Source: Trissonchulus latispiculum (Eukaryota > Nematoda > Enoplea > Enoplida > Ironidae). Taken from it: a DNA stretch of 64,000 nt. A model generated the notes under the pieces. It saw only the letters and a program-made list of their open reading frames with translations, did not search any database and was not told the DNA's origin. Both the position numbers and the translations under genes were made by a program. The stretch spans positions 41,933 through 105,932 of the forward strand of contig JASAND010016336.1 of assembly GCA_030248195.1 (NCBI GenBank), in the 5' to 3' direction. Every line of letters begins with the position of its first letter. Positions within the stretch are counted from its first letter, which is position 1. Below are positions 6,466-35,032 of the stretch, one piece after another.

Positions 6466-6599
6466 CTTTTACAACTTTTACAGCTTTTTATTCAAATCTT
6501 TTCAAGCTTTCAAATACAAATTTTGCCATTATGTCAAAGATTTTCTCAATTGTTATTGAAATATTTTAAATATTTGCATTACAGCTTTTTCTCAAAATT

Positions 6600-7585: not shown

Positions 7586-7589
7586 AAGT

Positions 7590-15022: not shown

Positions 15023-16346
15023 CCGCGGATATGGGTTGTTCGACGAAGCTGTGCCCATATTATATAATTTGCTCACAACCTAGTCCTCTTCTATTTTTGA
15101 ACCTATCCCCATATTAAGAATTTTAAAGACTAGTCCTCTCTTGATTTTGCAACCTCACCATCACCCATATTACTTTTTCATGCTCCAGAGGAGCATTTTT
15201 ATTTCTTGTCCTTCTGTTATTTTAAAGGATCCCTTTCCAGCAATGCGGTAATGGATACAAGGAGCTTGAACAGTGTCATGCTAAACGAGCGTAGTCGATT
15301 TACAATATACATATGCCCCCAACAAAACGCCGAAAAACGTTTGACCAGTGGTCAATAGGGCTCCTAGGCCGTAGTGACCAGTGGTCACTTCCGTCGGTTT
15401 CGGCAATATGCCCATTGAAACGAGCGTAGTCGATTTACGGTATATGCCCCCGACCAAAACGCCGAAAAAAGCAGTTTCGGCCGTTTGACCAGTGGTCAAT
15501 AGGCCCCATAGGCTGTAGTGACCAGTGGTCACTTCCGTCGGTTTCGGCGATGTGCCCACTGAAACGAGCGTAGTCGATTTACTATATATGCCCCCGACCA
15601 AACGCCGAAAAACGCTGTTTATGGGGAGTTTTCCCAACTTTGACCCTGGGCGAGGAACCACGGGAGCCATGCTGACCAGTGGTCACTTCGGGCGGTATCG
15701 GCAGTATGCTCATCGTTTTCAGCGACCCTGATTTACTGTATATGGGCACCACCCCAAGGCCGAAAAACGCCATTGTTAGTGACCTTTATGGCATTTATAG
15801 TAAAAGTGGGACTTAGAAACTTGCCCAACAGGCCAAAAAATGCAAAGTTTGGGCCCATCTCCTGAAAGCTAGGGAGCAAAAATAAAAAATCCCCCTCGTT
15901 ACTTTATGCACCCCTACTGGTAATTTTCAACAAAAGATACTAGACCTCTCCAGCTTTTACCCAGTTCTAGAAAAGTGTGACCAAAATTTGCGAAAAATAG
16001 CGAAAGTCAGACTTTGGGACCTTGGCACAGAATGACAAAATGACCAAAAAGGTAGCATGGGGGGACCCTGTCTACCAACAGGGTGCCAAAATGCCCACAT
16101 CGTTCCAACACTTAGCCGTAATATGCATTTCCAATAAGCGTTATTTACCGAGAAAAAACAAACGCACGGTAACTATCGCCTAGTGCAAAAAATCGATGTT
16201 TCGAATTTGAAAGTATGGTGGTACTTGTAATACTACAGTTGTTTACGATGGTAACCTTTTACCACTGCCGGACCTCTAATTAGCTGGCACCAGGCCAACA
16301 CGGTCTCCCGGGGGCCGCACAGACGCCGCTGTCGCGCCCCTACATA
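15023..16346 (-). mobile_element. Helitron-like element K, partial
   Basis: Contains one inner 3'-type arm (15023-15208, ending TTTTTATTTCTTG before TCC), a GACCAGTGGTC minisatellite (15283-15775), and a 5' region (15775-16346) collinear with 22140-22834 of element E (ATGCCCA...ATCGTTC, AGCTGGCAC, GGGCCGCAC). The terminal hairpin near 16325-16346 is degenerate (GTCGCGCCCCTACATAAT). The outer 3' arm is missing. Confidence 0.55.
15283..15775 (+). repeat. GACCAGTGGTC minisatellite, three to four units
   Basis: AAACGAGCGTAGTCGATTTA recurs at 15283, 15418 and 15562 (135-144 bp). Each unit holds the odd palindromes TTTGACCAGTGGTCAATAGG and GTGACCAGTGGTCAC and a CGGTTTCGGC stretch. Five units of the same family, about 145 bp each, occur in element D (32340-33080). 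Confidence 0.9.
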
Positions 16347-16822: not shown

Positions 16823-16824
<2 letters not shown>

Positions 16825-17172
16825 ATAGTCAATAATTACAATTCCAGCAGTTATATATACGTAAACTATATAGTATATAATTTGGTTGAGCTGGACTACG
16901 ACAAGCAACTGGAAAGAACCAAGGCTATGATTGTAATGCTAACGGTTGAATAGAAATAGAAGATCGTCGGAGAGAGTCCTGATCCTGAAGTTATTGTTGA
17001 AATATATACTTTTCTTATCAATGGTTAAAACGCCCAGTAGATAAATATTAAGAGTTTATCGAAAGAAATGTTTGCTTCCATTAAAACTCGTTTATCATAG
17101 TCGTATATTATTTACGTGCCGTAACTAAATCTGAACACTGGTACGTATAAAAATATATAACTTTTTCAGTCC

Positions 17173-17352
17173 GCGAATATGGGTTGCTCGGCGAAGCTGT
17201 GCCCATATTAATTCGCCCACAACCTAGTCCTCTTCTTTTTTTGAACCTAGCCCCATATTAAGCATTTTTAAGACTAGTCCTCTCTTGATTTTACAACCTC
17301 ACAACTACCCATATTACTTTTTCATGCTCCGGAGGAGCATTTTTATTACTTG
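17173..17352 (+). mobile_element. Solo Helitron-like 3' terminus (plus)
   Basis: A 180-bp segment matches the arms of element E (CGCGAATATGGGTTG, CCTAGTCCTC, CCCATATTA). It ends ATGCTCC-GGA-GGAGCAT, a perfect 7-bp stem, then TTTTATTACTTG before T. It is a clean example of the family's 3' terminal structure. No matching 5' end lies upstream, so it is a solo or truncated end, ten bases from the start of element B. Confidence 0.65.
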
Positions 17353-17362
17353 TATATATATA

Positions 17363-17544
17363 CAAGTAGGAAAAATGCTCCTTGCAGTCGCATGAAAAAT
17401 ACAATATGAGCCAGAAGGACAGCATTCAATTCGGGAAAAGACAAGATTTAAAATGTATAATATGAGCCAGCATTTACTTATGTAAAGGACAAGATTTAAA
17501 AGTTTAATATGAGCAGCTCCCTTTCTCGGGCTCATATTGACGCC
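17363..17544 (-). repeat. Element B outer 3' arm
   Basis: 182 bp, inverted with respect to 17935-18116 with very few differences. It contains three spaced AATATGAGC(C) boxes, each followed by GACAAGATTTAAAA-type sequence about 50 bp apart. It ends in the element's 3' terminus. Confidence 0.9.
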
Positions 17545-17934
17545 TTGGGAACGATGTTGTGTACGCAACTTAATCGATGCCAACGTATAAAATTAGAGTA
17601 AGTGTAAAAATAGACATTGCTCAGAGCCGCCCCCCAGGAGCCTGCACAGAGTAACTTAACATGCTACTTAGACTATTGATAATATCACACTATTTACGTA
17701 ATTACGTATTATATATTTACGCAACCAAAATCTGGGGTATTTTTACACAACGCACTTTTCAGCAAGTTCTTTTTGTCATTGCAGCCAGCATATACCATTA
17801 GCTAGCTGTCATACCATTAGTCACAGATCTGGTGTATTCAATAAAGTATATGTCTGACTGAATGCTCTATCAGAATCATATGAGCAAAACACGACGAAGA
17901 TAGAGAGAAACCACTCCCTGCGGGGTGTCCGTGC

Positions 17935-18116
17935 GGCGTCAATATGAGCCCGAGAAAGGGAGCTGCTCATATTAAACTTTTAAATCTTGTCCTTTACATA
18001 AGTAAATGCTGGCTCATATTATACATTTTAAATCTTGTCTTTTCCCGAATTGAATGCTGTCCTTCTGGCTCATATTGTATTTTTCATGCGACTGCAAGGA
18101 GCATTTTTCCTACTTG
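17935..18116 (+). repeat. Element B inner 3' arm
   Basis: 182 bp inverted copy of 17363-17544, ending CCTACTTG and then TCCTATTTCATTTTTGGG, a stretch kept in similar form after the inner arm of E and D. The sequence between the arms (17545-17934) matches nothing else in the window; it includes AATAAAGT at about 17850. Confidence 0.9.
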
Positions 18117-18261
18117 TCCTATTTCATTTTTGGGAATGAGGGTGTTAATGTGTTAATATGGTTTATTGACCATAACATTAACGCATACTGTTAAACTAAA
18201 TGCTACCCCAGCAACTTGAACCAGGAACTGGTTTACGATTGAACCAGTTGAACCAGACGAG

Positions 18262-19540
18262 ATACGGCGTCGTCAATATGCTCATCGTGTTCAGCGACCC
18301 CGATTTACTATATAAGGGCAAGCTTTTAGGCAGTTTCAACTTGTCTATTTCAAGTTACAGAGCGTGCTGCGGCTGCAGCGCCGCAGCGCAGCACGATAGC
18401 AGCACCGCACAGCGACGAGGATACTCTCATCGTGTTCAGCGACCCCGACTTACTATATAAGAAAGGCCAAGCTTTCGGGCAGTTTCAACTTGTCTATTTC
18501 AAGTTACACAGCGTGCTGCGGCTGCAGCGCCGCAGCGCAGCACGATAGCTGCACCGCACAGCGACGAGGATACTCTCATCGTGTTCAGCGACCCCGATTT
18601 ACTATATAAGGGCAAGCTTTCAGGCAGTTACAAGTTGTCTATTTCAAGTTACAGAGCGTGCTGCGGCTGCAGCGCCGCAGCGCAGCACGATAGCAGCACC
18701 GCACAGCGACGAGGATGCTTTCATCGTGTTCAGCGACCCCGATTTACTATATAAGGGCAAGCTTTCAGGCAGTTTCAACTTGTCTATTTCAAGTTACAGA
18801 GCGTGCTGTACGGTGCTGCACCTGCAGCGCCGCAGCGCAGCACGATAGCAGCGCCGCACAGCGACGAGGATACTCTCATCGTGTTCAGCGACCCCGATTT
18901 ACTATATAAGGGCAAGCTTTCAGGCAGTTTCAACTTGTCTATTTCAAGTTACAGAGCGTGCTGTACGGTGCTGCACCTGCAGCGCCGCAGCGCAGCACGA
19001 TAGCAGCGCCGCACAGCGACGAGGATACTCTCATCGTGTTAAGCGACCCCGATTTACTATATAAGGGCAAGCTTTCAGGCAGTTACAACTTGTCTATTGC
19101 AAGTTACAGGGCGTGCTGTACGGTGCTGCACCTGCAGCGCCGCAGCGCAGCACGATAGCAGCGCCGCACAGCGACGAGGATACTCTCATCGTGTTCAGCG
19201 ACCCCGATTTACTATATAAGGGCAAGCTTTCAGGCAGTTACAACTTGTCTATTGCAAGTTACAGGGCGTGCTGTACGGTGCTGCACCTGCAGCGCCGCAG
19301 CGCAGCACGATAGCAGCGCCGCACAGCGACGAGGATACTCTCATCGTGTTCAGCGACCCCGATTTACTATATAAGGGCAAGCTTTCAGGCAGTTACAACT
19401 TGTCTATTGCAAGTTACAGGGCTTGCTGTACGGTGCTGCACCTGCAGCGTCGCTGCGCCTGCCGCATCGCAGTGCAGCGCAATAGCGGCACCACACGGAG
19501 AAGCAAACATGCCTATCGTGTTCACGGACCCCGATTTACT
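18262..19540 (+). repeat. 145-155-bp minisatellite with GCTGCAGCGCCGCAGC hairpin
   Basis: GACCCCGA(T/C)TTACTATATAAG recurs at 18296, 18441, 18590, 18735, 18890, 19045, 19200 and 19355. The last five steps are exactly 155 bp, with near-identical units. Each unit holds GGGCAAGCTTTCAGGCAGTT and a GC-rich self-complementary block (GTGCTGC...GCAGCGCAGCAC). Repeated 64-66-codon frames are artefacts. A 144-bp version fills element D (33300-34340). Confidence 0.92.
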
Positions 19541-20221
19541 ATATATGGCTGCTCCAGAAAGGCCAAAAATAGTCGTTTTTAGCGACTTTTCCCCACTTTG
19601 ACCCTGGGCGAGGAACCACGGGCGCCATGCAGCCCGAGGGTCACATCCGTCGGTTGCGGCGATATGCTCATCGTTTTCAGCGACCCCGATTTACTATATA
19701 TGCGCACCACCAAATGGCCGAAAAACGCCATTTTAGATGACTTTTTGACAATTTTCTGTGTTGGGGCCTCGAAAAATTTCTAAGTCCAAACGCTTCGCGA
19801 CCCTATGTTTGACAGTCTGTAAAAATCGCTAGGAGCCGAATTGGGCCAAAATAATCAATAGTGAACAGGTTCATGGTTTGGTTAACAAGATAATAATAGG
19901 TAAAGGTTGCCACCATACGACATGTGAAAAATCAGTGTGCTAGAAAATGTACCAAAAGCGTAAAGGAGAAACATTGGAGAAAAAAAAAAAAAAACCCCAC
20001 TTAGAAAGTAGGTCTGAAAAGTGAAAATTTTCAAAGTTCATTTTTTCCGGGCAAGTTTGGTATCATTCGAAAGCTCTTGGCCTGGAGATTTCAAAAATGT
20101 AAATATTAGCTCTTAATTCCTTACCGTTAATTAGTTATGCCTAATTAAGCATTTTGAAAACACGCAATGTACCTTTTTGGCTCATATTATGGGGCGCTCT
20201 CCGAGCTGCCCCATGATATAT

Positions 20222-20252
20222 ACCCTTTTCAAAATCCTGGGTGCGGGCCTGA
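20222..20252. mobile_element. Fragment of hAT-like MITE right end
   Basis: CCCTTTTCAAAATCCTGGGT and GCGGGCCTG match the right terminus of the 4892-5174 MITE. Only about 30 bp remain between elements B and E. Confidence 0.55.
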
Positions 20253-20370
20253 TCGGGCTAGGTTCAAAAATAGAAGAGAACTAGGTTGTAAGCGAATTAA
20301 TATGGGCACAGCTTCGCCGGCACATGTTCGGAAAAGTGCTGGAACATTAGTTCTTAACTATATATATATA

Positions 20371-20550
20371 CAAGAATAAAAATGCTCCGATGGAGCATGA
20401 AAAATGCAATATGGGTGACACAGGGTTTTAAGCAGACAGAGGACTAGGTTTTAAAACGTTAATATGGGAGGGGCAGGTTGTAAATGCCAGGAGGACTAGG
20501 TTAAAAGCGCACTAATATGGACCAGCTTCGCTGAACAACCCATATTCGCG
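20371..20550 (-). repeat. Element E outer 3' arm
   Basis: 180 bp, inverse of 20902-21081. It carries spaced AATATGG boxes and ACTAGGTT(T/A)AAA motifs and the perfect stem ATGCTCC...GGAGCAT. The boxes are analogous to, but not the same as, the AATATGAGCC boxes of B, C and D. Confidence 0.88.
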
Positions 20551-20901
20551 AAAACTGTCCAGAGTTTCTATCGGCTGCTGCTTGCTGTTGCTATTGGCAG
20601 TTCTTCGGAAAATTGTACGATTTTTGTCAGCATGGCCTGCAAGTATAATATTGTGGTCGTGCTCCTTATTATACAAATTAATAATACACGTCCTCCATAA
20701 TGTCAACTGCTTTTCGCATCAACTTAATACAAGATTATGTGCCAACACTGCAGAAAAAAACACCTTGAACACCTTTCCACCAGAACTGCATTGTTTATTT
20801 CGAATACGTAAGCTTTAATATTTCACAACCGTCCCGCTTGCTTTGAAAGCTGAAGAATGTAGATCTTACTCGTATGTCATGTGGAGTGGAGCATGAGTGA
20901 C

Positions 20902-21081
20902 CGCGAATATGGGTTGTTCAGCGAAGCTGGTCCATATTAGTGCGCTTTTAACCTAGTCCTCCTGGCATTTACAACCTGCCCCTCCCATATTAACGTTTTA
21001 AAACCTAGTCCTCTGTCTGCTTAAAACCCTGTGTCACCCATATTGCATTTTTCATGCTCCATCGGAGCATTTTTATTCTTG
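20902..21081 (+). repeat. Element E inner 3' arm
   Basis: Inverted copy of 20371-20550, followed by TCCTATTTCATTTTTAAGG, almost the same as the sequence after the inner arm of B. The loop 20551-20901 has no second copy in the window. Confidence 0.88.
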
Positions 21082-21300
21082 TCCTATTTCATTTTTAAGG
21101 TTCTCAGTAAATAGAATAAACGTTAAAGCTGTGTGAAAGAAACTTTAAAAATTCCGCCAATCATTAATCGTCAACCGAAAGTACAGAACAAAAAGCTTGA
21201 AAAGTTCCAAGTTCTTCCTTTTTCTCTATTTTGACAGAAATCCAACATCCAGTATCCATGGCTGCAATAGTTTTAGTTACTGTATATAGCATATAGCACT

Positions 21301-21800
21301 CTACTGCAGCGCAACCAAACGAAAACTTTGCTGTCGGTGAAGGAAAGGTGAAGGTGAAGGAAACTCATACGGCAAGAGTTTCAATGCTCTGCCGCACTTG
21401 TGTGCAAAATTTCGGACGATTGCAACTTACGTGTAGCTAGTTATAGGCCGTGCTGTACTTCAGCAGCACTCTACTGCAGCCCAACCATACGCAAACGTCA
21501 ATGTCCAAAAAAGCAGACTTACACGGCACAATTTCTAATGCTTTTCCGCAGTTGCCTGCAGAATTTCAGGCGATTGCTGTTTGTCTGTTGCTAGTTATAG
21601 GCCGTGCTGTGCTTCAGCAGCACTCTACTGCAGCGCAACCAGACGCAAACGTTAATGCCAGTGAGGAAATTCATACGGCACGATTTGCAATGCTATTCTG
21701 CACTTGTGTGCAAAATTTCAGACGATTGCAAGTTTTCTGTAGTTAGTTATAGGCCGTGCTGTACTTCTGCAGCACTCCACTGCAGCGCAACCACATAGTA
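21301..21800 (+). repeat. 152-170-bp minisatellite in element E, three-plus units
   Basis: CTACTGCAGC(G/C)CAACCA recurs at 21301, 21471 and 21625 with a variant at 21777. Shared landmarks are CGGCA(C/A)AATT/GATTT, GTGTGCAAAATTTC and TTATAGGCCGTGCTGT. CAAAATTTCAG is reminiscent of the core of other arrays. The units are more diverged than in B. Confidence 0.8.
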
Positions 21801-22881
21801 GCATCGTAATAAGTATACGAAACGTATCTATAATAGTTTGTCATGTCCTAAACTATCTGTATGCCGAATTTCAAATACCAGTGACGAATGAATAGCTTGT
21901 TATCGACGGTGCTGTGTTTGGGGCAGCACATACAGCACGGTGGAACCTAGAGAATGCACCAACTAACATAGCTACGGTTCCCCCTTACTACAGACATGAT
22001 TTTCGCCAAGTTTCATATGTTCAGCCGTTTACAGTAAGTCTACAGACAGCGTGCTGTGGTTGCTGCATAGCAGTACAGCACGATAGCAGCACCGCACAGC
22101 GCTGCGACTATGCTCATCGTGTTCAGCGACCCCGATAACCCTTATATGCGTCTCACTATATGGCCCAAAACAGCATATTTAGGCCTATTTTGACTATTTC
22201 CTGTAGAGTTGGGACTTAGAAATTTTCCGAAAATGGCTATTTGGCCGGACCAACTTTGGGCCGGCCGCCAGAACGATCCTGGCCAGATATCAAAAATCGC
22301 CCTCGTTAGGACATATAAACCCTTCCGTGGATCCTTATGCAACAAACCACGTCTCTCTAGCGTCTTCCCTGAGTCCTGTAGCTTTGACAAAAAATTGGCC
22401 ATTTTTGGCCATTTTAGCGCCAAGTCCACTTTTGGCCGGCCGTACAGGTGGCCGGCCGGGCCGGGCAGCGAAAAAATATCAAAAAGGTTCACTTTCGGGG
22501 TATATACGTTCAGAAAAACCAAACTTCACCTGCTGAAAATGCCCAGATCGTTCTAACACTGCGACAGAAAATTGCATTTTTCCAAGCGTGACTTACACGG
22601 AAAAAAAAAAAACAAACGGACCTAACTTGCCCGGAAGCGAAAATTTTCAAAGTTGGAAATTTTGACCAAAACTTTTTTGCGACTTGTAGTACTCGTCGTG
22701 TAGATTCCAACGATACCAAAATTGTCCTGTTTGGTTGAGTATTTAGCTGGCACGGAGCTCGAACGGGTCTCCAAGGGCCGCACTGAGCCTTTTACACCCA
22801 TATTATAGGGGAGCGCTCTCGCGCTCCCCTATAATAACAGTTTATGGGCGTCGACTATCCCCCCCTCTTCCACAAACTTTA

Positions 22882-23154
22882 ACGAGATCGTTGTTCTGTT
22901 CTACCATTTCTATCGCTGAGAACATCTTCGTATTTCCTGGAGATAGTTCTCAATTGTTCATCCGTACGATCTTTGTCATTGGTAACGCTCCAGTTGTTGG
23001 CCAGCAAGAAGAAGCAGGCCACCATAAGTCCTGCAATAATCAATATAGGTGCCTTTCCATAACCATTGGGGCGCAAGTGTCCTCGTTTCATTCCCGAACT
23101 GCTGTGGGTGCTCGAATCCAACAAAGTTAAACGACTTTCCCCATCAATGGCCAT
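22882..23154 (-). CDS. Putative host exon: N-terminus of a type II membrane protein
   Basis: An ATG with G at +4 opens 91 codons (MAIDGESRLTLLDSS...), stop at 22879. Residues about 1-34 are a polar, Ser-rich cytoplasmic-type N-terminus. Residues about 37-55 (APILIIAGLMVACFFLLAN) form one membrane segment, followed by WSVTNDKDRTDEQLRTIS, a charged heptad-like stretch. This layout fits Golgi type II coiled-coil proteins such as the GOLM1/GOLM2 group, where a short tail, one anchor and a coiled coil follow in that order. A possible splice donor (AATG|GTAGAA, about 22900) would make it a first exon whose partners lie outside the window. No repeat copy exists here, unlike its surroundings. The family assignment is tentative. 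Confidence 0.4.
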
Positions 23155-23208
23155 ACAAACAAACTGCAATAATAGAAGTATATATACGTGTATATGTTAC
23201 GGGCAGAT

Positions 23209-24130
23209 GAATAAATTGGACACTTCTGAAAGTGTCCAGACAGATAGATAAATTATGCATGTGCGCAGACAGACAGATAAATTCTTACAATTATCGCATT
23301 CTGTCCGGACAGATGAGTAAATTATCTATGTGTCCAGAACAAGATTGGACAGATGCCTAAATTTTTAAACTAAGAACTATTGGAGGGGTATACCCAGGGG
23401 TTTGAACTTCTTCGGAGAGCGCTAGTTTCTTGCATGCAAGTAGGTAACATACCGTAGTTAAAAAGTTAATATAAGGCATTTACAGATAAGTATATACATA
23501 AAATAACTAAAATTAATTAACAAAAAATAATTGGAACGGTGTCTAATAAATGCTATATAAAATTAATTAAATCAAGTAACAGATAAATTTCAAAATGTCT
23601 TCTTTTAATTTGGTAATTTTATGTATATATGATAACATTTTAATTTAATAATTATTTTATATACGTACTTATTTGTATGTAATTATATATATGCCATTAA
23701 AATAAGATTAGGCAGTACGTATATATATAAATAAATAATTATACGTTAGCATAAAACGTAAATATGTAAATTTAATTATTGTTAGTTTCACCGTTGGTTT
23801 TCATTTTAAATTACGTTAAAATAACGACACCAAAATTTTACAGATAAGTATATACATAAAATAACTAAAATTAATTAACAAAAAATAATTGGAACGGTGT
23901 CTAATAAATGCTATATAAAATTAATTAAATCAAGTAACAGATTTAAAATTTAATAAAATATATATAAGCTAATAAAATGTAGTAACAAGCTTTAGAACAA
24001 TGCATAAACTATATATAAAAAATAAAGCGACGAACAATACTTAAGTTAAACAAGTTATAAGCACAAATATTCTGCACTGTTAGTTCTTAGTTTAAGAATT
24101 TACGCATCTGTCCAACCTTGATCTGGACAC
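23209..24130. mobile_element. AT-rich inverted-repeat element J1 (reference empty site)
   Basis: Ends share inverted sequence built from GTCCGGACAGAT(N)nTAAATT units. The left part 23220-23390 pairs with 24075-24130, and more fully with the right end of copy J2 at 35260-35333 plus 36147-36200. Inside, a 105-bp direct duplication (23479-23583 and 23838-23943) begins ACAGATAAGTATATACATAA. No coding sequence. A second, interrupted copy (J2) is split by Helitron-like elements C and D, which makes J1 an empty-site reference. Confidence 0.7.
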
Positions 24131-24215
24131 TAGCGATCGACCGGAATTCCGGTTCCGGTTCCGGTACTTTTTGGTTCCGGTTCCGGTTCCGGTTTTTGAA
24201 AACGTACCGGAACCG
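24131..24215. repeat. GGTTCC/GGAACC repeat at a probable hAT-like end
   Basis: TAGCGATCGACCGGAATTCC followed by repeated GGTTCCGG and the inverse GGAACCGGAACC. The start resembles a hAT terminus (TAGCGATC), and in copy J2 the sequence runs on uninterrupted (GGACACATAGATAA), so something inserted here. No matching right end or 8-bp duplication was found. Confidence 0.5.
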
Positions 24216-24700
24216 GAACCAATTTTAGTGTATTATCAAAAGTGAAATTTTATTAAAATTTTCAGAAATTTTGTAAAATTTCTTTTAACATTTTGAAAAA
24301 ATTGCGAATCTCTTGTAAGCAGAATATTATTTTCCCAAAAATTTTCGCCTGCGGCGCTATTGCATTATATATTTAACTTAGAATGTTTAGATTTATTAAT
24401 AATTATCTAGTACCTTATCGTTAATTTATTATTATTAATATTAATTACGTATATGATCAAAATATTACGCACTTATATATTATTTAAAAATTCAAAATAG
24501 AGCACAAGCCCGTCGATTCGATTGCTATTAGCTTTTTGATAGATACTTTAAAATTATTAATTTTGCTAAATTGGAATATATTGAAGCCTTGGCGTAGACC
24601 TATGCTATTTCAAAGATTAGTGCACTGTTGCATAATTAGATGTCAGTTTTAACTCAGCTATTGTTTAAATGTTTTGCTGTTTGTTTTGTATATAAATAAA
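24216..24700. other. AT-rich sequence, no gene
   Basis: Contains one CGCCTGCGGCGC hairpin (24349). No frame of note. The right edge (about 24700-24759) is an inverted piece of element J (TAAAGCTTGTTACTATATTT). Confidence 0.35.
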
Positions 24701-24759
24701 GCTTTTTCGTTTAAATAGTTTATTCATTGCTCTAAAGTAAAGCTTGTTACTATATTTTA

Positions 24760-24942
24760 CAAGTAGGAAAAATGCTCCTTGCAGTCGCATGAAAAGTCAA
24801 TATGAGCTATAATGGTCAACATTTAAATGTGTCAAGGACAGTATTTAAAATGTTTCATATGAGCCAACATCTAAATAAGTAGAGGACAAGATGTAAACGG
24901 CTAATATGAGCCGCTACGTTTCTCTTGGGCTCATATTGATGC
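24760..24942 (-). repeat. Element C outer 3' arm
   Basis: 183 bp, inverse of 26025-26208, with AATATGAGC boxes about 50 bp apart and GGACAAGATGTAAAC-type separators. It ends at the element's 3' terminus CTTG. Confidence 0.88.
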
Positions 24943-24974
24943 TCATATAGCTTTTGCTTACTTTTAATCCAACA

Positions 24975-25692
24975 CAGTGTTTTTTTGCTCAAAAACGCGT
25001 GTAATTACACACTTTTTTCTGGAAAATAGCAAAAAAATTTCGGCGACTGTGTAACGTTACACCAAAATTTTGGACAAATTTTTCCAAATGGTCGGAAGTT
25101 TTTCCAATGCGCATTCATTTGTTTCCACATATTTTCCGTTTCTGGGGGGCTTCGCCCCCCAGACCCCCTTTTGCACAATGTGTTACATTTTATTTTTGGT
25201 ATTTAAGTATGCACATTATATTTGTTATATTTGTTCGTTCCTGTATTAAAAACGCGTACACACCAAAAATTTTCAGTTTATGAAGCAAAATTTGACGGGT
25301 TCCTTGCAAAGCTTTGTGCGACAGAAGGCCTTTCAAAAAATTATGTTCCTTCGGTGCACTGGTGTTTTTCGTTCTATCAAGTCAAAACCAATAAATGCAA
25401 ATCATCGATGTAACTGCTCAATTTTTTAATTTTGTCGATCTGATTTGGTGAAACTTCACCAAAAAATGCTGTAAGTAATATTTTAAAATTTTACTTATAA
25501 AGAAGCGGCTTCTAAAAAACGTCGGAATCATTTTGTTAACAATAAAATTATATATATATATACATGTGTTAAGTAAAACGCGAGTAAATTAAAAAATTTT
25601 AGACAGTCATACACTTTTTTCCGAAAAATAGCAAAAAATTTTGGAGAGGTGTGTAACGTTACACATAAGCCGTCGGCGAAAAAAAAACACTG
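24975..25692. mobile_element. hAT-like MITE inside the arm loop of element C
   Basis: A 718-bp element flanked by ATCCAACA on both sides (24967-24974, 25693-25700). The ends are CAGTGTTTTTTTGC and the inverse of AAAAAAAAACACTG. GTGTAACGTTACAC palindromes occur near both ends (25048, 25650) and GGGGGGCTTCGCCCCCC near 25144. It is non-coding. Because it lies in the loop, it is younger than the assembly of the arms. Confidence 0.9.
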
Positions 25693-26024
25693 ATCCAACA
25701 CTGAAATGGCTTGGATGAATAACGACGCATAAACATTAATTTTGCAAAGCTGTATGTAAACGTTTTCTTCTCCACCGCTACATCCAAGTACACATTTAAG
25801 GCCACCATATAAGTCAACAAAACGAAACCGAAGTCCAATCTAATGAAGAAACAAAAATGTGGAACTTACACATGTTGTGAAATCTTGAGAAAAACCACAT
25901 TTGAAGTTATCACCGCAATCATCACATTAATTCAATATATTCCCAAGCCAATCAAATCGTTTATAAACACTGATGCTTATATATATGCCAACCGTAAACT
26001 GTATATATGTTTGCCATTTTAGTC

Positions 26025-26208
26025 GCGTCAATATGAGCCCAAGAGAAACGTAGCGGCTCATATTAGCCGTTTACATCTTGTCCTCTACTTATTTAGATGT
26101 TGGCTCATATGAAACATTTTAAATATTGTCCTTGACACATTTAAATGTTGACCATTATAGCTCATATTAACTTTTTCATGCGACTGCAAGGAGCATTTTT
26201 CCTACTTG
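26025..26208 (+). repeat. Element C inner 3' arm
   Basis: Inverted copy of 24760-24942, ending CCTACTTG, then TCCTCCGTCTAGTTTTTGGG. Without its hAT-like insertion the loop (24943-26024) is about 356 bp, matching nothing else in the window. Confidence 0.88.
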
Positions 26209-26274
26209 TCCTCCGTCTAGTTTTTGGGAACGCTGCCATAACTGTGGCAAGCAGCAATCACAAATTCCACCAGT

Positions 26275-27329
26275 GAATTCCCCATGCCCAATAAGCTTTG
26301 CATGCAAAATTTCAGACTTTCAGCTATCTCCAGTAGCTTGAACCATGAACCAGTTGAACCAGATCTGGCCAGCCATGGTTTAGCTCAGCGAAGTAACACC
26401 ACCAGTGAATTCCCCATGCCCAATAACCTTTGTATGCAAGATTTCAGTCTTTCAGCTATCTCCAGTAGCTTGAACCAGGAACTGGTTCAACTTTGAACCA
26501 GTTGAACCAGATCTGGACAGCCATGGGTCAGATCAGCAAAGCTATATACACCACCACTGAATTCCCCATGCCCAATAACCTTTGTATGCAAAATTTCAGC
26601 CTTCATCTCCAGTTGCTTGAACCAGGACCTGGTTCAACTTTGAACCAGATCTGGCCAGCCATGGGTTGGATCACCAAAGTTACACCACCAGTGAATTCCC
26701 CATGCCCAATAACCTTTGTATGCAAAATTTCAGCCTTCTAGCTATCTCCAGTAGCCTGAACCATGAACCAGTTGAACCAGATCTGGCCAGCCATGGGTTA
26801 GATCAGCGAAGTAACACCACCAGTGAATTCCCCATGCCCAATAACCTTTGAATGCAAAATTTCAGCCTTCTAGCTATCTCCAGTTGCTTGAACCAGGACC
26901 TGATTCAACTTTGAACCAGTTGAACCGGACCTGGCCAGCCATGGGTTGGATCACCGAAGTTACACCACCAGTGAATTCCCCATGCCCAATAACCTTTGTA
27001 TGCAAAATTTCAGCCTTCCAACTATCTCCTGTAGCTTGAACAAGGACCTGGTTCAACTTTGAACCAGTTCAACTAGATCTGGCCAGCCATGGGTTGGATC
27101 ACCAAAGTTACACCACCAGTGAATTCCCCATGCCCAATAACCTTTGTATGCAAGATTTCAGCCTTTCAGCTATCTCCAGTAGCTTGAACCAGGAACTGGT
27201 TCAACTTTGAACCAGTTCAACCAGATCTGGACAGCCATGGGTCGGATCACCAAAGTAACACTACCAGTGAATTCCCCATGCCCAATAACCTTTGTATGCA
27301 AGATTTCAGCCTTTCAGCTATCTCCAGTA
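26275..27329 (+). repeat. GAACCAG minisatellite block 1 of element C
   Basis: GAATTCCCCATGCCCAATAA recurs at 26275, 26407, 26559, 26693, 26825, 26973, 27121 and 27269, with steps of 132-134 or 148-152 bp. The short units have lost about 15 bp of the TTTGAACCAGTTGAACCAG part. Other landmarks are ACCTTTGTATGCAAAATTTC and TCTGGCCAGCCATGGG. The frames in it (60-82 codons, both strands) are periodic and not genes. Confidence 0.93.
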
Positions 27330-28079
27330 CACGGTTTTTTGCGTAAAATACTGCGTATTTACGCAGTCGAGCTTAAAAATACGCAGTCAAAAACAAAAAT
27401 ACGCACCAAAATAGGCAGCCGAAAAATTCGGTAGTAGGAATTTCTAGAGTGCTCTAAATTAATTTCTTGAGACAATTTACCGTAGTTTGGGCTCTGGCTT
27501 CTTATGGGGGGCTGCCGCCCCCCAGACCCCCTGCATAGCTCTTCGATTCTCCTTCCGTCTACAGTTGATTATACTTTCTGTCTAAGCCCACGTTGTACCA
27601 TGCGATGCTTTTCTTTCTATATTTGATTTGATATAGTACGTATATAAATTAAAATCTTATATATGTGTTCAATCAAGGGAACAGTAACTCTGTTTGTCTA
27701 ACCAAATATTGGCTTAACTATTAAAAAGCTTAAACTGTTCAAGGCAAAGAAGTCAAAGTTTTAAGAGCAAATTTACTCCGAAATTTGAAATTTCCTTCAA
27801 CATCTGGGGGGCTGCGCCCCCCAGACCCCCTGCGTGTCTATATATTTTTCGTCACCTATTCATTCATACTCTTACACCACAGAGAGAGCACGAAATTTTA
27901 ACTCAAGCTAAGATTCCTAACGTTGTTTAAATCTCTTAAAAACAGCATTAATTCGACGCTAAATGCGTTTATATCTTTTATAACGTTGAGAAGCGATTTT
28001 TGTAGTCGAAATTAAAAATACGCACTCGAAAACAAAAATAAGCAAAATTTACGCAGGTCCGATTTTCAAAAAAACCCTG
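27330..28079. mobile_element. hAT-like MITE in the GAACCAG array, copy 1
   Basis: A 750-bp element flanked by CTCCAGTA (27322-27329, 28080-28087). Ends CACGGTTTTTTGCG and, reversed, CAGGGTTTTTTTG. It contains ATACGCAGTC/TACGCA repeats at both ends and two hairpin blocks, GGGGGGCTGCCGCCCCCC (about 27508) and GGGGGGCTGCGCCCCCC (about 27806). The target is a satellite unit. The whole unit-plus-insert was later duplicated. Confidence 0.9.
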
Positions 28080-28087
28080 CTCCAGTA

Positions 28088-29534
28088 GCTTGAACCAGGA
28101 TCAACTTTGAACCAGTTGAACCAGATCTGGCCAGCCATGGGTCAGATCAGCAAATAACACCACCAGTGAATTCTCCAAGCTCAATAACCTTTGTATGCAA
28201 GATTTCAGCCTTTCAGCTATCTCCAGTAGCTTGAACCAGGAACTGGTTCAACTTTGAACCAGTTGAACCAGATCTGGACAGCCATGGGTCAGATCAGCAA
28301 AGTTATATACACCACCACTGAATTCCCCATGCCCAATAACCTTTGTATGCAAAATTTCAGCCTTCATCTCCAGTTGCTTGAACCAGGACCTGGTTCAACT
28401 TTGAACCAGATCTGGCCAGCCATGGGTTGGATCACCAAAGTTACACCACCAGTGAATTCCCCATGCCCAATAACCTTTGTATGCAAAATTTCAGCCTTCT
28501 AGCTATCTCCAGTAGCCTGAACCATGAACCAGTTAAACCAGATCTGGCCAACCATGGGTTAGATCAGCGAAGTAGCACCACCAGTGAATTCCCCATGCCC
28601 AATAACCTTTGTATGCAAAATTTCAGCCTTCTAGCTATCTCCAGTTGCTTGAACCAGGACCTGATTCAACTTTGAACCAGTTGAACCGGACCTGGCCAGC
28701 CATGGGTTGGATCACCGAAGTTACACCACCAGTGAATTCCCCATGCCCAATAACCTTTGTATGCAAAATTTCAGCCTTCCAACTATCTCCTGTAGCTTGA
28801 ACAAGGACCTGGTTCAACTTTGAACCAGTTCAACTAGATCTGGCCAGCCATGGGTTGGATCACCAAAGTTACACCACCAGTGAATTCCCCATGCCCAATA
28901 ACCTTTGTATGCAAAATTTCAGCCTTCTAGCTATCTCCAGTTGCTTGAACCAGGACCTGATTCAACTTTGAACCAGTTGAACCGGACCTGGCCAGCCATG
29001 GGTTGGATCACCGAAGTTACACCACCAGTGAATTCCCCATGCCCAATAACCTTTGTATGCAAAATTTCAGCCTTCTAACTATCTCCTGTAGCTTGAACAA
29101 GGAACTGGTTCAATTTTGAACCAGTTTAACCAGATCTGGCCAGCCATGGGTCGGATCACCAAAGTAACACCACCAGTGAGTTTCCCATGCCCAATAACCT
29201 TTGTATGCAAAATTTCAGCCTTCTAGCTATCTCCAGTAGCTTGAACCAGGAACTGGTTCAACTTTGAACCAGTTGAACCAGATCTGGCTAGCCATGGGTC
29301 AGATTAGCAAAGTAACACCACCAGTGAATTCTCCAAGCCCAATAACCTTTGTATGCAAGATTTCAGCCTTTCAGCTATCTCCAGTAGCTTGAACCAGGAA
29401 CTGGTTCAACTTTGAACCAGTTCAACCAGATCTGGACAGCCATGGGTCGGATCACCAAAGTAACACTACCAGTGAATTCCCCATGCCCAATAACCTTTGT
29501 ATGCAAGATTTCAGCCTTTCAGCTATCTCCAGTA
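28088..29534 (+). repeat. GAACCAG minisatellite block 2 of element C
   Basis: Continues the same 132-148-bp array. Units from 28254 onward repeat units from 26493 onward at an offset of 1761 bp, and three extra 148-bp units make the final offset to the next insert 2205 bp. The inheritance of individual variant positions (such as CCGGACCTGGCCAGCC) shows block-wise copying. Confidence 0.92.
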
Positions 29535-30273
29535 CACGGTTTTTTTGCGTAAAATACTGCGTATTTACGCAGTCGAGCTTAAAAATACGCAGTCAAAAAC
29601 AAAAATACGCACCAAAATACGCAGCCGAAAAATTCGGTAGTAGGAATTTCTAGAGTGCTCTAAATTAATTTCTTGAGACAATTTACCGTAGTTTGGGCTC
29701 TGGCTTCTTATGGGGGGCTGCCGCCTCCCAGACCCCCTGCATAGCTCTTCGATTCTCCTTCCGTCTACAGTTGATTATACTTTCTGCCTAAGCCCACGTT
29801 GTACCATGCGATGCTTTTCTTTCTCTATTTGATTTGATATAGTATATAAATTAAAATCTTATATATGTGTTCAATCAAGGGAACAGTAACTCTGTTTGTC
29901 TAACCAAATATTGGCTTAACTATTAAACTGTTCAAGGCAAAGAAGTCAAAGTTTTAAGAGCAAATTTACTCCGAAATTTGAAATTTCCTTCAACATCTGG
30001 GGGGCTGCGCCCCCCAGACCCCCTGCGTGTCTATATATTTTTCGTCACCTATTCATTCATACTCTTACACCACAGAGAGAGCACGAAATTTTAACTCAAG
30101 CTAAGATTCCTAACGTTGTTTAAATCTCTTAAAAACAGCATTAATTCGACGCTAAATGCATTTATATCTTTTATAACGTTGAGAAGCGATTTTTGTAGTC
30201 GAAATTAAAAATACGCACTCGAAAACAAAAATAAGCAAAATTTACGCAGGTCCAATTTTCAAAAAAAACCCTG
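29535..30273. mobile_element. hAT-like MITE in the GAACCAG array, copy 2
   Basis: Near-identical to 27330-28079, again bracketed by CTCCAGTA (29527-29534, 30274-30281). The same target duplication and flanking array units show that this copy arose by segmental duplication, not a second transposition. It lacks a few short stretches, e.g. near 29840 and 29925. Confidence 0.9.
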
Positions 30274-30281
30274 CTCCAGTA

Positions 30282-30513
30282 GCTTGAACCAGGATCAACT
30301 TTGAACCAGTTGAACCAGATCTGGCCAGCCATGGGTCAGATCAGCAAAGTAACACCACCAGTGAATTCTCCAAGCTCAATAACCTTTGTATGCAAGATTT
30401 CAGCCTTTCAGCTATCTCCAGTAGCTTGAACAAGGAACTGGTTCAACTTTGAACCAGTTGAACCAGATCTGGCCAGCCATGGGTCGGATCACCAAAGTAA
30501 CACCACCAGTGAA
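30282..30513 (+). repeat. GAACCAG minisatellite block 3 of element C
   Basis: About one and a half units. The array ends at CACCACCAGTGAAT and joins a sequence shared with A (GACACCTTCAAGCTGAAAAA, reversed) and then the conserved 5' subterminal region. Confidence 0.88.
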
Positions 30514-31013
30514 TGCGTTTTTGCCTGTTTTTAGACTATTTTCAAATTTTCGGACTTTTTTCAGCTTGAAATTTTTCAGCTTGAAGGTGTCCAAAAACGG
30601 TGTCCAAAATTTTTTTCCATTTTTGACCATCTATAAAAATCGAACCACATCGAAATTCGGAAAAAACATAAACTTGCTAGTACCATTGCCTAGATATTCA
30701 AAAAATAGTATAGAAACATTTTTCCTATGGGCCGTTCGAAAAATCGAGTTAACACAAAATTGACAAAAATCATGCTGAATACAGAGAAAAAACCCCACTT
30801 TCAAACCCGAAGAGAAAGTCGATTTTTTCAAAGTTCATTTTTTCCGGGCAAGTTTGGTATCATTCGAAAGCTCTTGGCCTGGAGATTTCAAAACTGTAAA
30901 TATTAGCTCTTAATTCCTTCCTGTTAATTAGTTATGTCTAATTAGCTCTTCTCAAAATCCGCAAAGTGCCTTTATAGCTCATATTATGGGGGGCTCTCCG
31001 AGCTCCCCCATGA

Positions 31014-31298
31014 TTAGCTTATGATTGCTTAAATTTCAAAATGTCTTCTTTTAATTTGGTAATTTTATGTATATATGATAACATTTTAATTTAATAATTA
31101 TTTTATATACGTACTTATTTGTATGTAATTATATATATACCATTAAAATAAGATTAGGCAGTACGTATATATATAAATAAATAATTATACGTTAGCATAA
31201 AACGTAAATATGTAAATTTAATTATTGTTAGTTTCACCGTTGGTTTTCATTTTAAATTACGTTAAAATAACGACACCAAAATTTTACAGATAAGTATA
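31014..31298. repeat. Element J2, left piece between C and D
   Basis: Matches 23584-23849 of J1 (CAAAATGTCTTCTTTTAATT ... ATTTTACAGATAAGTATA). It continues at 35033, so Helitron-like element D lies between two halves of one older repeat. Confidence 0.85.
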
Positions 31299-31526
31299 CA
31301 AGTAGGAAAAATGCTCCTTGCAGTCGCATGTAAAATGCAATATGAGCTAAGGGCAGCATTTAAATACGTAAAAGACAAGAGTTAAAATACTTAATATGAG
31401 CCAGCATCTAAATGGGTAGAAGACAAGATTCAAAATGCTTAATATGAGCCAGCATTTAAATGTCTAAAAGACAAGATTTAAATGCTTAATATGAGCAGCT
31501 CGCTTTCTCGGGCTCATATTGACGCC
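31299..31526 (-). repeat. Element D outer 3' arm
   Basis: 228 bp, longer than the arms of B and C because it has one more of the approximately 50-bp internal steps. Each step starts AATATGAGC(C), passes AGCATTTAAAT and ends AAGACAAGATT(T)AAA. Ends at the 3' terminus. Confidence 0.9.
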
Positions 31527-31998
31527 TTCAAGCTTGTAAGTAAACCTCAAGGTACTCAGTGAGGGTCAAGAAATGTCGACTAAAATGTATATACACATCT
31601 CCTGACCTAAACGCCTCTATTAGTCGCTATAAAGACAACTGCAGGAACTGTCAGATCCTTATTCAGCACGTAATCGTAATAACGTTATAGCTCTAGCCCC
31701 GCATATTATAGCTCTTGTTATATTACGTTATATATATATATATAGTTTAGCTTACATACTAGTGCGATTTCAGCTGGCAGCTTGCTATCACTGACTTCTG
31801 AAAAAGATGAGCTGGACTGTAAAAACAGAAATAAGCTGACAAGTAATACGTTTTCGAAATAAAAGCGTTTGTTTTAATTAAATCGCTTAGAGTTATCTTG
31901 TGGTTAGACAACTTGACAAATAAATAGGAATTTGACGCATGTCACATTGGCGAAAATAACGGGCCTTGAAGGAGTCATTTAAGTGGCTGTAAATGTAT

Positions 31999-32224
31999 CG
32001 TCAATATGAGCCCGAGAAAGCGAGCTGCTCATATTAAGCATTTAAATCTTGTCTTTTAGACATTTAAATGCTGGCTCATATTAAGCATTTTGAATCTTGT
32101 CTTCTACCCATTTAGATGCTGGCTCATATTAAGTATTTTAACTCTTGTCTTTTACGTATTTAAATGCTGCCCTTAGCTCATATTGCATTTTACATGCGAC
32201 TGCAAGGAGCATTTTTCCTACTTG
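31999..32224 (+). repeat. Element D inner 3' arm
   Basis: About 226 bp, inverse of 31299-31526, then TCTTCTTCCATTTTTGG. The loop 31527-31998 is unique here. It holds a TATATA run (31729-31742), AATAAAAG at about 31858 and no frame of note. Confidence 0.9.
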
Positions 32225-32339
32225 TCTTCTTCCATTTTTGGTATTGTTGTAGAGTACGTGGCAGTATATTCGATCTCATTCTGACCCACACAGGACCCAG
32301 CCACCGCTGTTTTTGCGGACTTTTTCCAACGTTGACCCT

Positions 32340-33080
32340 GGCCGACTAACCACGAGCGCCATGCAGCCCGAGGGTCACATCCGTCGGTTTCGGCAATATG
32401 CCCATTGAAACGAGCGTAGTCGATTTACTATATATGCCCCCGACAAAAACTCCGAAATACGCTGTTTTAGGCCGTTTGACCAGTGGTCAATGGGTCCCCT
32501 AGGCCGTAGTGACCACTGGTCACTTCCATCGATGTCGGCAATAGGCCCATTGAAACGAGCGTAGTCGATTTACTATATATGCCCCCGACAAAACGCCGAA
32601 AAACGCTATTTTAGGCCGTTTGACCAGTGGTCAATAGGTCCCCTAGGCCGTAGTGACCACTGGTCACTTTCATCGGTTTCGGCAATATGCCCATTGAAAC
32701 AAGCGTAGTCGATATACTATATATGCCCCCGACCAAAACGCCGAAAAACGCTGTTTTAGGCCATTTGACCAGCGGTCAATAGGCCCCCGAGGCCATAGTG
32801 ACCAGTGGTCACTTCCATCGGTTTCGGCAATATGCCCATTGAAACGAGCGTACTCGATTTACTATATATGCCCCCGACCAAAACGCCGAAAAACGCTGTT
32901 TTACGCCATTTGACCAGTGGTCAATAGGCCCCCGAGGCCGTAGTGACCACTGGTCACTTCCATCGGTTTCAGAAATATGCCCATTGAAACGAGCGTACTC
33001 GATTTACTATATATGCCCCCAACCAAAACGCCGAAAACCGCTGTTTATAGTGAGTTTTCCCAACTTTGACCCCGGGCGAG
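32340..33080 (+). repeat. 145-bp GACCA(G/C)TGGTC minisatellite, five units
   Basis: AAAC(G/A)AGCGTA(G/C)TCGAT recurs at 32408, 32553, 32697, 32842 and 32987, a constant step of about 145 bp. Palindromic TTGACCAGTGGTCAATAGG and GTGACCACTGGTCAC sit in each unit. Homologous to 15283-15775 in element K. Confidence 0.92.
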
Positions 33081-33299
33081 GAACCACGGGAGCCATGCTG
33101 ACCAATGGTCACTTCGGACGGTATCGGCAGTATGCTCATCGTTTTCAGCGACCCCGATTTCCTATATATGGACACCACCAAATGGCCGAAAATAGCTGTT
33201 TTTGGGGACTTTTCCCAACTTTGACCCTGGGCGAGGAACCACGGGCGCCATGCAGCCCGAGGGTCACATCCGTCGGTTTCGGCGATATGCTCATCGTTT

Positions 33300-34340
33300 T
33301 CAGCGACCCCGATTTACTATATAAGGGCAAGCTTTCAGGCATTTAGAACTTGTCTATTGCAAGTTACACGGCGTGCTGCACGGTGCTGCGGCTGCAGCGC
33401 CGCAGCGCAGCACCGCACAGCGACGAGGATACTCTCATAGTGTTCAGCGACCCCGATTTACTATATAAGGGCAAGCTTTCAGGCAGTTAGAACTTGTCTA
33501 TTACAAGTTACAGGGCGTGCTGCACGGTGCTGCGGCTGCAGCGCCGCAGCGCAGCACCGCACAGCGACGAGGATACTCTCATCGTGTTCAGCGACCACGA
33601 TTTACTATATAAGGGCAAGCTTTCAGGCAGTTTCAACTTATCTATTTCAAGTTACAGGGCGTGCTGCACGGTGCTGCGGCTGCAGCGCCGCAGCGCAGCA
33701 CCGCACAGCGACGAGGATACTCTCATAGTGTTCAGCGACCCCGATTTACTATATAAGGGCAAGCTTTCAGGCAGTTAGAACTTGTCTATTACAAGTTACA
33801 GGGCGTGCTGCACGGTGCTGCGGCTGCAGCGCCGCAGCGCAGCACCGCACAGCGACGAGGATACTCTCATCGTGTTCAGCGACCACGATTTACTATATAA
33901 GGGCAAGCTTTCAGGCAGTTTCAACTTATCTATTTCAAGTTACAGGGCGTGCTGCACGGTGCTGCGGCTGCAGCGCCGCAGCGCAGCACCGCACAGCGAC
34001 GAGGATACTCTCATCGTGTTCAGCGACCCCGATTTACTATATAAGGGCAAGCTTTCAGGCAGTTAGAACCTGTCTATTGCAAGTTACAGGGCGTGCTGCA
34101 CGGTGCTGCGGCTGTGGCGCCGCAGCGCAGCACGATAGCAGCATCGCACAGTGACAAGGATACTCTCATCGTGTTCAGCGACCCCGATTTACTATATAAG
34201 GGCAAGCTTTCAGGCAGTTTCAACTTGTCCATTTCAAGTTACAGGGCGTGCTGCACGATGCTCCACCTGCAGCGTCGCTGCGGCTGCCGCATCGCAGTGC
34301 AGCGCAATAGCGGCACCACACGGAGAAGCAAACATGCCTA
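33300..34340 (+). repeat. 144-bp minisatellite with 288-bp dimer order
   Basis: GACC(C/A)CGATTTACTATATAAG recurs every 144 bp from 33305 to about 34180. Odd and even units differ consistently (TTAGAACTTGTCTATTAC versus TTTCAACTTATCTATTTC; GACCCCG versus GACCACG), so the real recent unit is a 288-bp dimer. Same family as the array of element B. The two 94-codon frames 288 bp apart are periodic artefacts. Confidence 0.92.
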
Positions 34341-35032
34341 TCGTGTTCAGCGACCCCAATTTACTATATATGGCTTCACAAAAAGGCCAAAAATAGCCGT
34401 TTTTAGCGACTTTTCCCAACTTTGACCCTGGGCGAGGAACCACGGGCGCCATGCAGCCCGAGGGTCACATCCGTCGGTTTCGGCGATATGCTCATCGTTT
34501 TCAGCGCCCCCGATTTACTATATATGCGCACCACCAAATGGCCGAAAAACGCTATTTTAGACGACTTTTTGACAATTTTCTATGTTGGGGCCTCGAAAAA
34601 TTTCTAAGTCCAAACGCTTCGCAACCCCATGTTTGACAGTCTGTAAAAATCGCTAGGAGCAAAATCGGGCAAAAATAATCAATAGTGAACAGGTTCATGG
34701 TTATGCTAACAAGATAATAATAGGTAAAGGTTACCACCATAAGCCATGTGAAAAATCCGTTGGACACAAAATTGTACAAAAGCGTAAAGGACGAACACAA
34801 CAGAAAAAAAAACCACACATACAAAGTGGTCAGAAAAGTCGATTTTTTCAAAGTTCATTTTTTCCGGGCAAGTTTGGTATCATTCGAAAGCTCTTGGTCT
34901 GGAGATTTCAGAAATGCAAATTTTAGCTCTCAACTCCTTACCGTTAATTAGTTTTGCTTAATTAACCTTTTCAAAGGCTGCATTTGACCGTTTTAGCTCA
35001 TATTATGGGGTGCTCTCCGAGCTACCCCATGA

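What the first reader, a model, noticed from the sequence alone, without database searches (positions are those of the whole stretch)
17363..32224. Duplicated, inverted 3' termini enclosing a different loop in every copy
Elements B, C, D and E each carry their 3' terminus twice, as inverted arms (182, about 184, about 227 and 180 bp). The loops between arms (17545-17934; 24943-26024 minus its hAT insert; 31527-31998; 20551-20901) are of similar size, about 350-470 bp, yet share no visible similarity with each other. Conserved arms with exchangeable contents suggest repeated capture of host DNA, or a replication outcome in which a second 3' end forms downstream. I do not know a described Helitron group with this layout.
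Basis: partly seen in the sequence, partly recalled or inferred. Interest (0 to 1): 0.88.

Follow-up and report, generated by a model that had tools for sequence, protein, structure and literature searches.

The report
Helitrons with matched mirror-image 3' ends
A large family of Helitron-like jumping DNA in this unnamed eukaryotic genome carries its tail end twice, as mirror-image arms around a spacer that belongs to each subfamily and is not new in every copy; the two arms of a copy change together, likely because they pair and correct each other while the element moves as single-stranded DNA.

Summary
The layout is real; "a different loop in every copy" is not. B, C, D and E carry inverted arms of 182, 180, 226 and 180 bp (98-100% matched) around loops of about 350-474 bp that do not align with each other. 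In the window's own genome (734 Mb) the B, D and E loops are families: 342, 268 and 1,637 first-look candidates; the 40 scored for each, the window's own included, are 95-100% identical. The window holds one member of each of four subfamilies. The unit is a non-autonomous Helitron-type element: A|T insertion (perfect empty site for D), 5' TC (TT in E), 3' CTTG, hairpins, a subfamily-specific 10-14 bp subterminal repeat. New here: arms co-evolve. In 20 copies chosen by loop, all have both arms; four variants sit in both arms of the same copies (8 cases; 0 of 10,000 random pairings reach 8), beside 13 one-arm differences. A decayed copy shares 1 of 44. I infer that the arms correct each other during single-strand transposition. 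Per-copy host capture is refuted; how unrelated loops arose between subfamilies is open.

The parts
17363..20216 (-). Element B (2,854 bp), 5' end at 20216 (A|TC), 3' end at 17363 (CTTG|T)
17363..17544 (-). B outer arm = 3' terminus
   Evidence: 182/182 with inner arm
17545..17934 (-). B loop, a family loop (342 candidates in the genome, 40 scored at 95-100%)
17935..18116 (+). B inner arm, inverted copy of the 3' terminus, followed by the junction TCCTATTTCATTTTTGGG
20371..22834 (-). Element E (2,464 bp); starts TT instead of TC
20371..20550 (-). E outer arm
20551..20901 (-). E loop (1,637 candidates in the genome, 40 scored at 97-100%)
20902..21081 (+). E inner arm
24760..31013 (-). Element C (6,254 bp with later insertions)
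24760..24942 (-). C outer arm
24943..26024 (-). C loop, interrupted by an insert at 24975-25692 with direct repeat ATCCAACA; its family status was not tested
26025..26208 (+). C inner arm
31299..35032 (-). Element D (3,734 bp), with a perfect empty site elsewhere in the window (23773-23932)
31299..31524 (-). D outer arm (three 48-bp units in both arms; B has two, C aligns like B)
31525..31998 (-). D loop (268 candidates in the genome, 40 scored at 97-100%)
31999..32224 (+). D inner arm
14587..16345 (-). Element A: part of its loop (14587-15022), inner arm (15023-15208) and body; its outer arm was not found in the window, where another Helitron 5' end (14585) abuts the loop. The body end near 16345 is read by eye
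16823..17352 (+). Element X: loop (94% to the loop of L019) and 3'-terminal arm; no inner arm found
5315..8400 (+). Type-3 relative I: same kind of 5' hairpin end, a single 3' end, no inverted arm; its 5' flank ends in T, not A

Best explanation
These are non-autonomous Helitron-type elements whose 3'-terminal module (180-226 bp) is present twice as inverted arms around a subfamily-specific loop, the whole moves as one unit, and the arms of a copy change together, likely because they anneal to each other in the single-stranded transposition intermediate and mismatches between them are then corrected. Shown: the layout, one empty site for the whole unit (D) and a diverged one (C), family-wide loops for B, D and E, arm variants shared within copies of the B family, and one copy in which the loop lies inverted relative to the body. 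Inferred: that pairing and correction take place during rolling-circle transposition rather than while the element rests in the chromosome. The outer arm is the end that abuts the host T. The inner arm would act as a built-in template that preserves it; the loop, being unpaired, is not held constant, and between subfamilies it has become unalignable by drift, by replacement or both. A second proposed use of the fold is as a strong stop signal for strand transfer, like the small 3' hairpin of other Helitrons.
For: Arm tree groups outer with inner arm of each element, not by position. Unit number differs in both arms together: three 48-bp units in both arms of D, two in B. In 20 copies chosen by loop, 20 have both arms; variants at arm positions 63 (five copies), 88 and 94 (L060) and 174 (L063) are in both arms of the same copies; 8 shared, against 0 of 10,000 random outer/inner pairings reaching 8, and 28 of 10,000 reaching 3 when position 63 is left out. 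A decayed copy (L042_3033) has 25 and 20 arm differences with only 1 shared, and L034 has 0 and 10: this suggests that resting copies do not correct. Loop flipped in L023. D arms 226/226 in 41 of 41 listed places, while the D loops of such copies are 97-99%. D empty site 160/160 and C empty site 74-75% over 113 columns. Outer flank begins with T in 20 of 20 copies, and in 31 of 31 of the 39 first-set pairs whose inner side and both flanks were read. The 5' subterminal word pairs best with its own element's 3' end in 4 of 4. Helraiser work reports use of only one donor strand (passages of PMC5876387).
Against: Arms in the 40 hits, and the best-hit list, were picked for 100% identity, so their invariance is no evidence by itself. 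Ordinary gene conversion or crossing-over between arms in the chromosome could produce the same patterns; the flip in L023 is as expected from it. L034 was chosen because one of its arms is intact, and L042_3033 is a single decayed copy. Related type-3 elements manage with a single 3' end, so the double end is not required for movement. No autonomous partner with these termini was found: 147 RepHel matches exist in the genome but none was linked.
Confidence: 0.6

Rival explanations
1. Arms are kept alike by ordinary gene conversion or crossing-over between the inverted repeats in the chromosome, as with inverted repeats elsewhere; transposition has no part in it.
For: Loop inverted relative to the body in L023; inversion of insertion sequences by recombination between their inverted repeats is known (abstract of PMC3004938).
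Against: Only 1 loop flip in 63 copies with a known inner side: 33 in the first B set (three of them re-read by eye), 20 in the second, 10 D; the decayed copy L042_3033 shares 1 of 44 arm differences.
Confidence: 0.25
2. One reading: each copy captured its own piece of host DNA, or formed a new second 3' end, at transposition.
For: B, C, D and E loops do not align; bypass of the 3' end with transduction of flanking DNA is shown for Helraiser (passages of PMC4778049).
Against: B, D and E loops recur at 95-100% in 40 scored places each, the window's own included; the 20 B-loop places fetched are all complete arm pairs, so no donor locus was seen among them. Exchange of the loop when a subfamily is founded is a different claim, compatible with the best explanation, and stays open.
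Confidence: 0.05
3. Arms plus loop are an independent long-terminal-repeat MITE or foldback element that sits next to Helitrons by chance or by preference.
For: Arm-loop-arm alone looks like a foldback element, and both arms end CTTG followed by T.
Against: The D empty site shows arms and body inserted together without target duplication; the inner arm runs into a junction shared by B/E, B/D, B/C and A/E (0-2 of 1,000 shuffles; six other pairs are not significant; among outer flanks B/E also scores high, 7 of 1,000, both being TA repeats); the 5' end word matches its own 3' arm best in 4 of 4.
Confidence: 0.03
4. No exchange between arms: strong purifying selection on both arms as protein-binding sites keeps them alike.
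For: Arms vary less than loops even in copies picked by loop: 21 arm differences in 7,256 positions (8 shared ones counted once; outermost columns not counted) against 96 mismatches and 35 gaps in 7,798 loop positions. The arms repeat the subterminal word core.
Against: Selection does not place the same new variant in both arms of one copy.
Confidence: 0.07

Closest known systems
Helitron2 / HINE and DINE-1 type non-autonomous elements (PMC4067079, PMC5148889, PMC7492417; passages seen)
   Same: Subterminal inverted repeat close to the 5' end and about 40 bp from the 3' end, hairpins at the ends, a short palindrome near the 3' end, and central arrays of satellite-like repeats (144-155 bp here).
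   Different: A|T target instead of a T-rich or TT target; the whole 3' module duplicated as long inverted arms around a loop; arms that co-evolve.
Canonical Helitrons such as Helraiser (PMC4778049, PMC5876387; passages seen)
   Same: 5' TC (in B, C and D), A|T insertion without target duplication, hairpin near the 3' end (clear in E, weak in B).
   Different: Ends CTTG, not CTRR; the passages state that these Helitron ends carry no inverted repeats, whereas here there are subterminal repeats and a 180-226 bp inverted copy of the 3' end.
Adeno-associated virus terminal repeats (recalled, no call)
   Same: Repeats of one genome correct each other through pairing in single-stranded DNA.
   Different: There the repeats are at both ends; here both copies are at one end.
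Foldback and Galileo elements (search listing and start of abstract only, PMC3573991)
   Same: Long internally repetitive inverted arms.
   Different: Here no target duplication (D), rolling-circle type ends, and the arms do not bound the mobile unit.

Membership tests
Canonical Helitron (Helitron1) | Starts with 5' TC | tested here: met
   B, C and D; E starts TT
Canonical Helitron (Helitron1) | Ends with CTRR-3' | tested here: not met
   B, C, D and E end CTTG
Canonical Helitron (Helitron1) | Inserts between A and T without target duplication | tested here: met
   D empty site 160/160; 5' flank A in B, C, D and E; outer flank T in 20/20 and 31/31
Canonical Helitron (Helitron1) | 16-20 nt palindrome about 11 nt before the 3' end | tested here: inconclusive
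   Strong in E (0 of 200 shuffles), weak in B (49 of 200); C and D not folded there
Canonical Helitron (Helitron1) | Encodes or depends on RepHel | tested here: inconclusive
   No RepHel in the eight ORFs searched of the 32 listed for the window; 147 RepHel matches in the genome, none linked to these ends
Helitron2 / HINE | Subterminal inverted repeat, asymmetric in distance | tested here: met
   10-14 bp, 29-31 nt from the 5' end and 38-41 nt from the 3' end
Helitron2 / HINE | Insertion between T and T or into T-rich DNA (HINE) | tested here: not met
   A|T, often inside TA repeats: outer flank TATATA in 13 of 20 and 22 of 31
Helitron2 / HINE | Central tandem repeats (frequent, not required) | tested here: met
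   Arrays of 144-155 bp units in B, C, D and E
Foldback / long-TIR MITE | Inverted repeats bound the mobile unit, with target duplication | tested here: not met
   Unit runs from outer arm to the 5' hairpin end; no target duplication for D

The most novel reading that the evidence does not exclude
A rolling-circle transposon that proofreads its own 3' end: an internal inverted copy of the terminus pairs with the terminus in each single-stranded transposition cycle, so that both are rewritten to one sequence, while the unpaired loop evolves freely and can be replaced without loss of mobility.
Probability: 0.4. Interest if true: 0.75.

Novelty: new variant of a known kind. Interest (0 to 1): 0.57.

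Why it matters
[quoted passage not shown] A family that keeps a second, inverted copy of that end, changing together with the first, offers a way to hold a 3' end constant, and a natural record of what single-stranded Helitron DNA does: each copy with a mismatch between the arms reports whether correction has taken place. It also cautions that unrelated-looking cargo in neighbouring copies need not be captured anew by each; here it is the inherited middle of different subfamilies.

Tried and rejected
Per-copy capture: rejected by the genome searches with the loops. Independent MITE: rejected by the empty site, the junction and the co-varying end words. Loop swap between B and D: I first took it as proven by similar bodies (89%) and dissimilar loops, then as explained by fast drift of loops (A/X 64-66% with arms at 90%); but E/L043 loops are at 87% with arms at 87% and B-type loops diverge no more than 5' ends, so I leave it open, leaning to replacement for B/D. 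An apparent loop flip in L014, L021 and L027 was a wrong call of the inner side, corrected by eye from the flanks printed; L035, L045 and L042_3033 stay undetermined. 'Iteron' reading of the repeated word: replaced by the subterminal repeat of Helitron2-type elements. Gene content of loops: only short open frames (longest 88 codons) and no Rfam match there at gathering threshold; these frames were not searched against protein libraries. Exact search for the 3' end in viral and prokaryote contigs: 0 hits.
Full report
What is there. Elements B (17363-20216), E (20371-22834), C (24760-31013) and D (31299-35032) lie on the minus strand. Each follows a host A, starts with TC (TT in E) and a hairpin, and ends CTTG followed by a host T. 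The 5' hairpins fold better than nearly all shuffles (B 0, C 3, D 0, E 0 of 200 as good). The terminal 180-226 bp occur again, inverted, 351-474 bp further in (C's loop is about 350 bp without its insert). Arms match 182/182 (B), 226/226 (D), 180/180 (E) and 178/180 plus a gap (C). Between B, C, D and E the arms are only 53-85% alike.

The unit moves as a whole. Joining the two flanks of D gives 160 bases that occur uninterrupted and 160/160 identical at 23773-23932, in another copy of the repeat that D sits in; C's joined flanks match two places over 113 columns at 74-75% across the junction. B and E gave no second copy of their site in the window. There is no target duplication for D. So, for D and likely for C, outer arm, loop, inner arm and body were inserted together.

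The ends belong together. A 10-14 bp word near the 5' end is inverted near the 3' end, 29-31 and 38-41 nt from the tips; for each of the four elements the best partner of the 5' word is its own 3' end. Such subterminal repeats mark Helitron2, HINE and DINE-1 elements (passages of PMC4067079 and PMC5148889). The arms carry further copies of the word core CATATT (2-4 per outer arm).

Loops are a subfamily property. Twenty regions around B-arm hits gave 22 arm pairs; 20 of these loops are homologous to the window's B loop, and the other two belong to pairs with other arms. With the remaining regions, 34 of 39 regions (40 hits, two of them in one region) hold an inverted pair; in L043 the pair is that of a nested E-type element that splits the B-type one. 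Of the five without, L046 and L047 have the arm at a contig end, L024 and L030 have a cut-off loop, and L040 has the loop but no partner arm was found. Genome searches with the loops: B 342 candidates, 40 scored at 95-100%; D 268, 40 at 97-100%; E 1,637, 40 at 97-100%; each 40 includes the window's own copy. Candidates are first-look counts, so neither exact nor complete. The C loop search did not complete. Thus the title claim fails for B, D and E: the window shows one member of each of several subfamilies.

Between subfamilies. Arm and loop identities are: E/L043 87 and 87; A/X 90 and 64-66; B/L042_3033 73 and 63; B/C, B/D, C/D and E against B, C, D no loop similarity (in one search the best of 12 comparisons among B, C, D and E is z 2.3 for B/D reversed, and two A/C comparisons reach z 3.1 and 2.3). 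The bodies of B and D are 89% alike over 1.8 kb. In B-type regions the mean best identity to the window is 94.0% for the loop (36 loci), 94.2% for the 5' 200 bp (15) and 96.3% for the inner junction (28); arms are 100% by selection. Loops thus do not drift faster than the 5' end within the B family, which speaks for replacement rather than drift between B and D. The ladder has too few steps to settle it.

Arms change together. The arm tree joins outer and inner arm of each element (support 96/98 B, 99/100 D, 93/92 C, 99/100 E), although the inner junction (CTTG then TCCTATTTCATTTTT) is shared by B and E, which have different arm types (0 of 1,000 shuffles; B/C and B/D 1, A/E 2; the other six pairs are not significant; among outer flanks B/E reaches 7 of 1,000, both being TA repeats). 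A fair sample is the 20 loci picked by loop: 20 of 20 have both arms; position 63 differs in both arms of the same five copies, positions 88 and 94 in both arms of L060, position 174 in both arms of L063. That is 8 shared variant-copies, beside 13 differences in one arm only; 0 of 10,000 random pairings reach 8; without position 63, 3 observed and 28 of 10,000 as high. Differences in the outermost six columns were left out. In the first set, 36 of the 39 pairs have B-type loops (three with other loops were dropped); there the picked arm has no differences by selection, several arms were scored over 54-103 columns only because of my trimming, and the decayed copy L042_3033 has 25 and 20 differences with 1 shared. 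D supports the same picture from lists alone: 41 of 41 listed arms are 226/226, while loops of such copies are 97-99%; again the arms are picked as best hits.

Direct sign of arm-arm interaction. In L023 the loop is inverted relative to the body. Of 63 copies with a known inner side (33 + 20 B-type, 10 D-type), one is flipped.

How it works (inferred). Passages of PMC5876387 report that Helraiser uses a single donor strand. A single strand of these elements would fold into a hairpin of about 180-226 bp (B: -263.5 against -76.0 kcal/mol for 20 shuffles), joining terminus and inner copy. Mismatch correction in that hairpin would explain variants shared by both arms, arms that stay matched in the moving lineage, independent decay in a dead copy, and a loop that is not held constant. 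Ordinary gene conversion in the chromosome remains the main rival. Whether the fold also stops strand transfer, as the small 3' hairpin of Helraiser does (passages of PMC4778049), is untested; B has a weak small hairpin, in line with the long one standing in for it, but E has both.

Relatives with a single end. I (5315-8400) and an element in L014 (1,546 bp) have the same kind of 5' hairpin and one 3' end without any inner arm: in I the only arm-model hit is its own tip, in L014 there is none. The doubled end is thus a trait of part of this Helitron group.

Novelty. Seven searches of the open paper library listed no Helitron group with an inverted second 3' end. I saw the listings of those searches, passages of five papers and the abstract of a sixth. 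Most subscription papers and Repbase are not covered. Filed as a Helitron-type element with mixed features: neither canonical (no CTRR) nor HINE (A|T target).

Noticed in passing
L023:3948-4718: B-type copy whose loop is inverted relative to body and arms, the only one of 63 with a known inner side.
   Followed up: yes
L022:2592-4136: Tandem copy of the whole arm-loop-arm module; the first outer arm is cut about 12 bases before its end and runs into the body sequence that precedes the second inner arm, as if a new round of copying began there.
   Followed up: partly
G000, 147 places: Many RepHel (Helitron_like_N) matches, many in long open frames, a group of them with nearly the same score: the genome holds autonomous-looking Helitrons.
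   Followed up: partly
26267-30514: Inside C a block of about 2.1 kb (tandem array plus an element that starts ACGGTTTTTTGCG) is duplicated at 93.6%; the two copies of the inserted element are 99-100% alike where compared.
   Followed up: no
8437-8955 and 10372-10885: Helitron 5' end together with its flank (CTCCAAATACG...) present twice in the same orientation: a segmental duplication.
   Followed up: no
17171-17544: X and B lie tail to tail, their 3' ends separated by a few TA repeats; many copies sit in TA repeats (outer flank TATATA in 13 of 20 and 22 of 31).
   Followed up: partly
L043:1725-2432: An E-type element inside the loop of a B-type element; L030 has another repeat array inside a B loop, so loops seem to tolerate insertions.
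   Followed up: partly
24975-25692: Insert in C's loop with an 8-bp direct repeat (ATCCAACA) and ends CAGTGTTTTTTT/AAAAACACTG, like a hAT element (family recalled, not tested).
   Followed up: no
59120-61480 (-), 40427-41857 (+), 11445-12317 (-): Copia-type polyprotein fragment and two non-LTR endonuclease ORFs (the retrotransposon class names are recalled from the Pfam hits).
   Followed up: no
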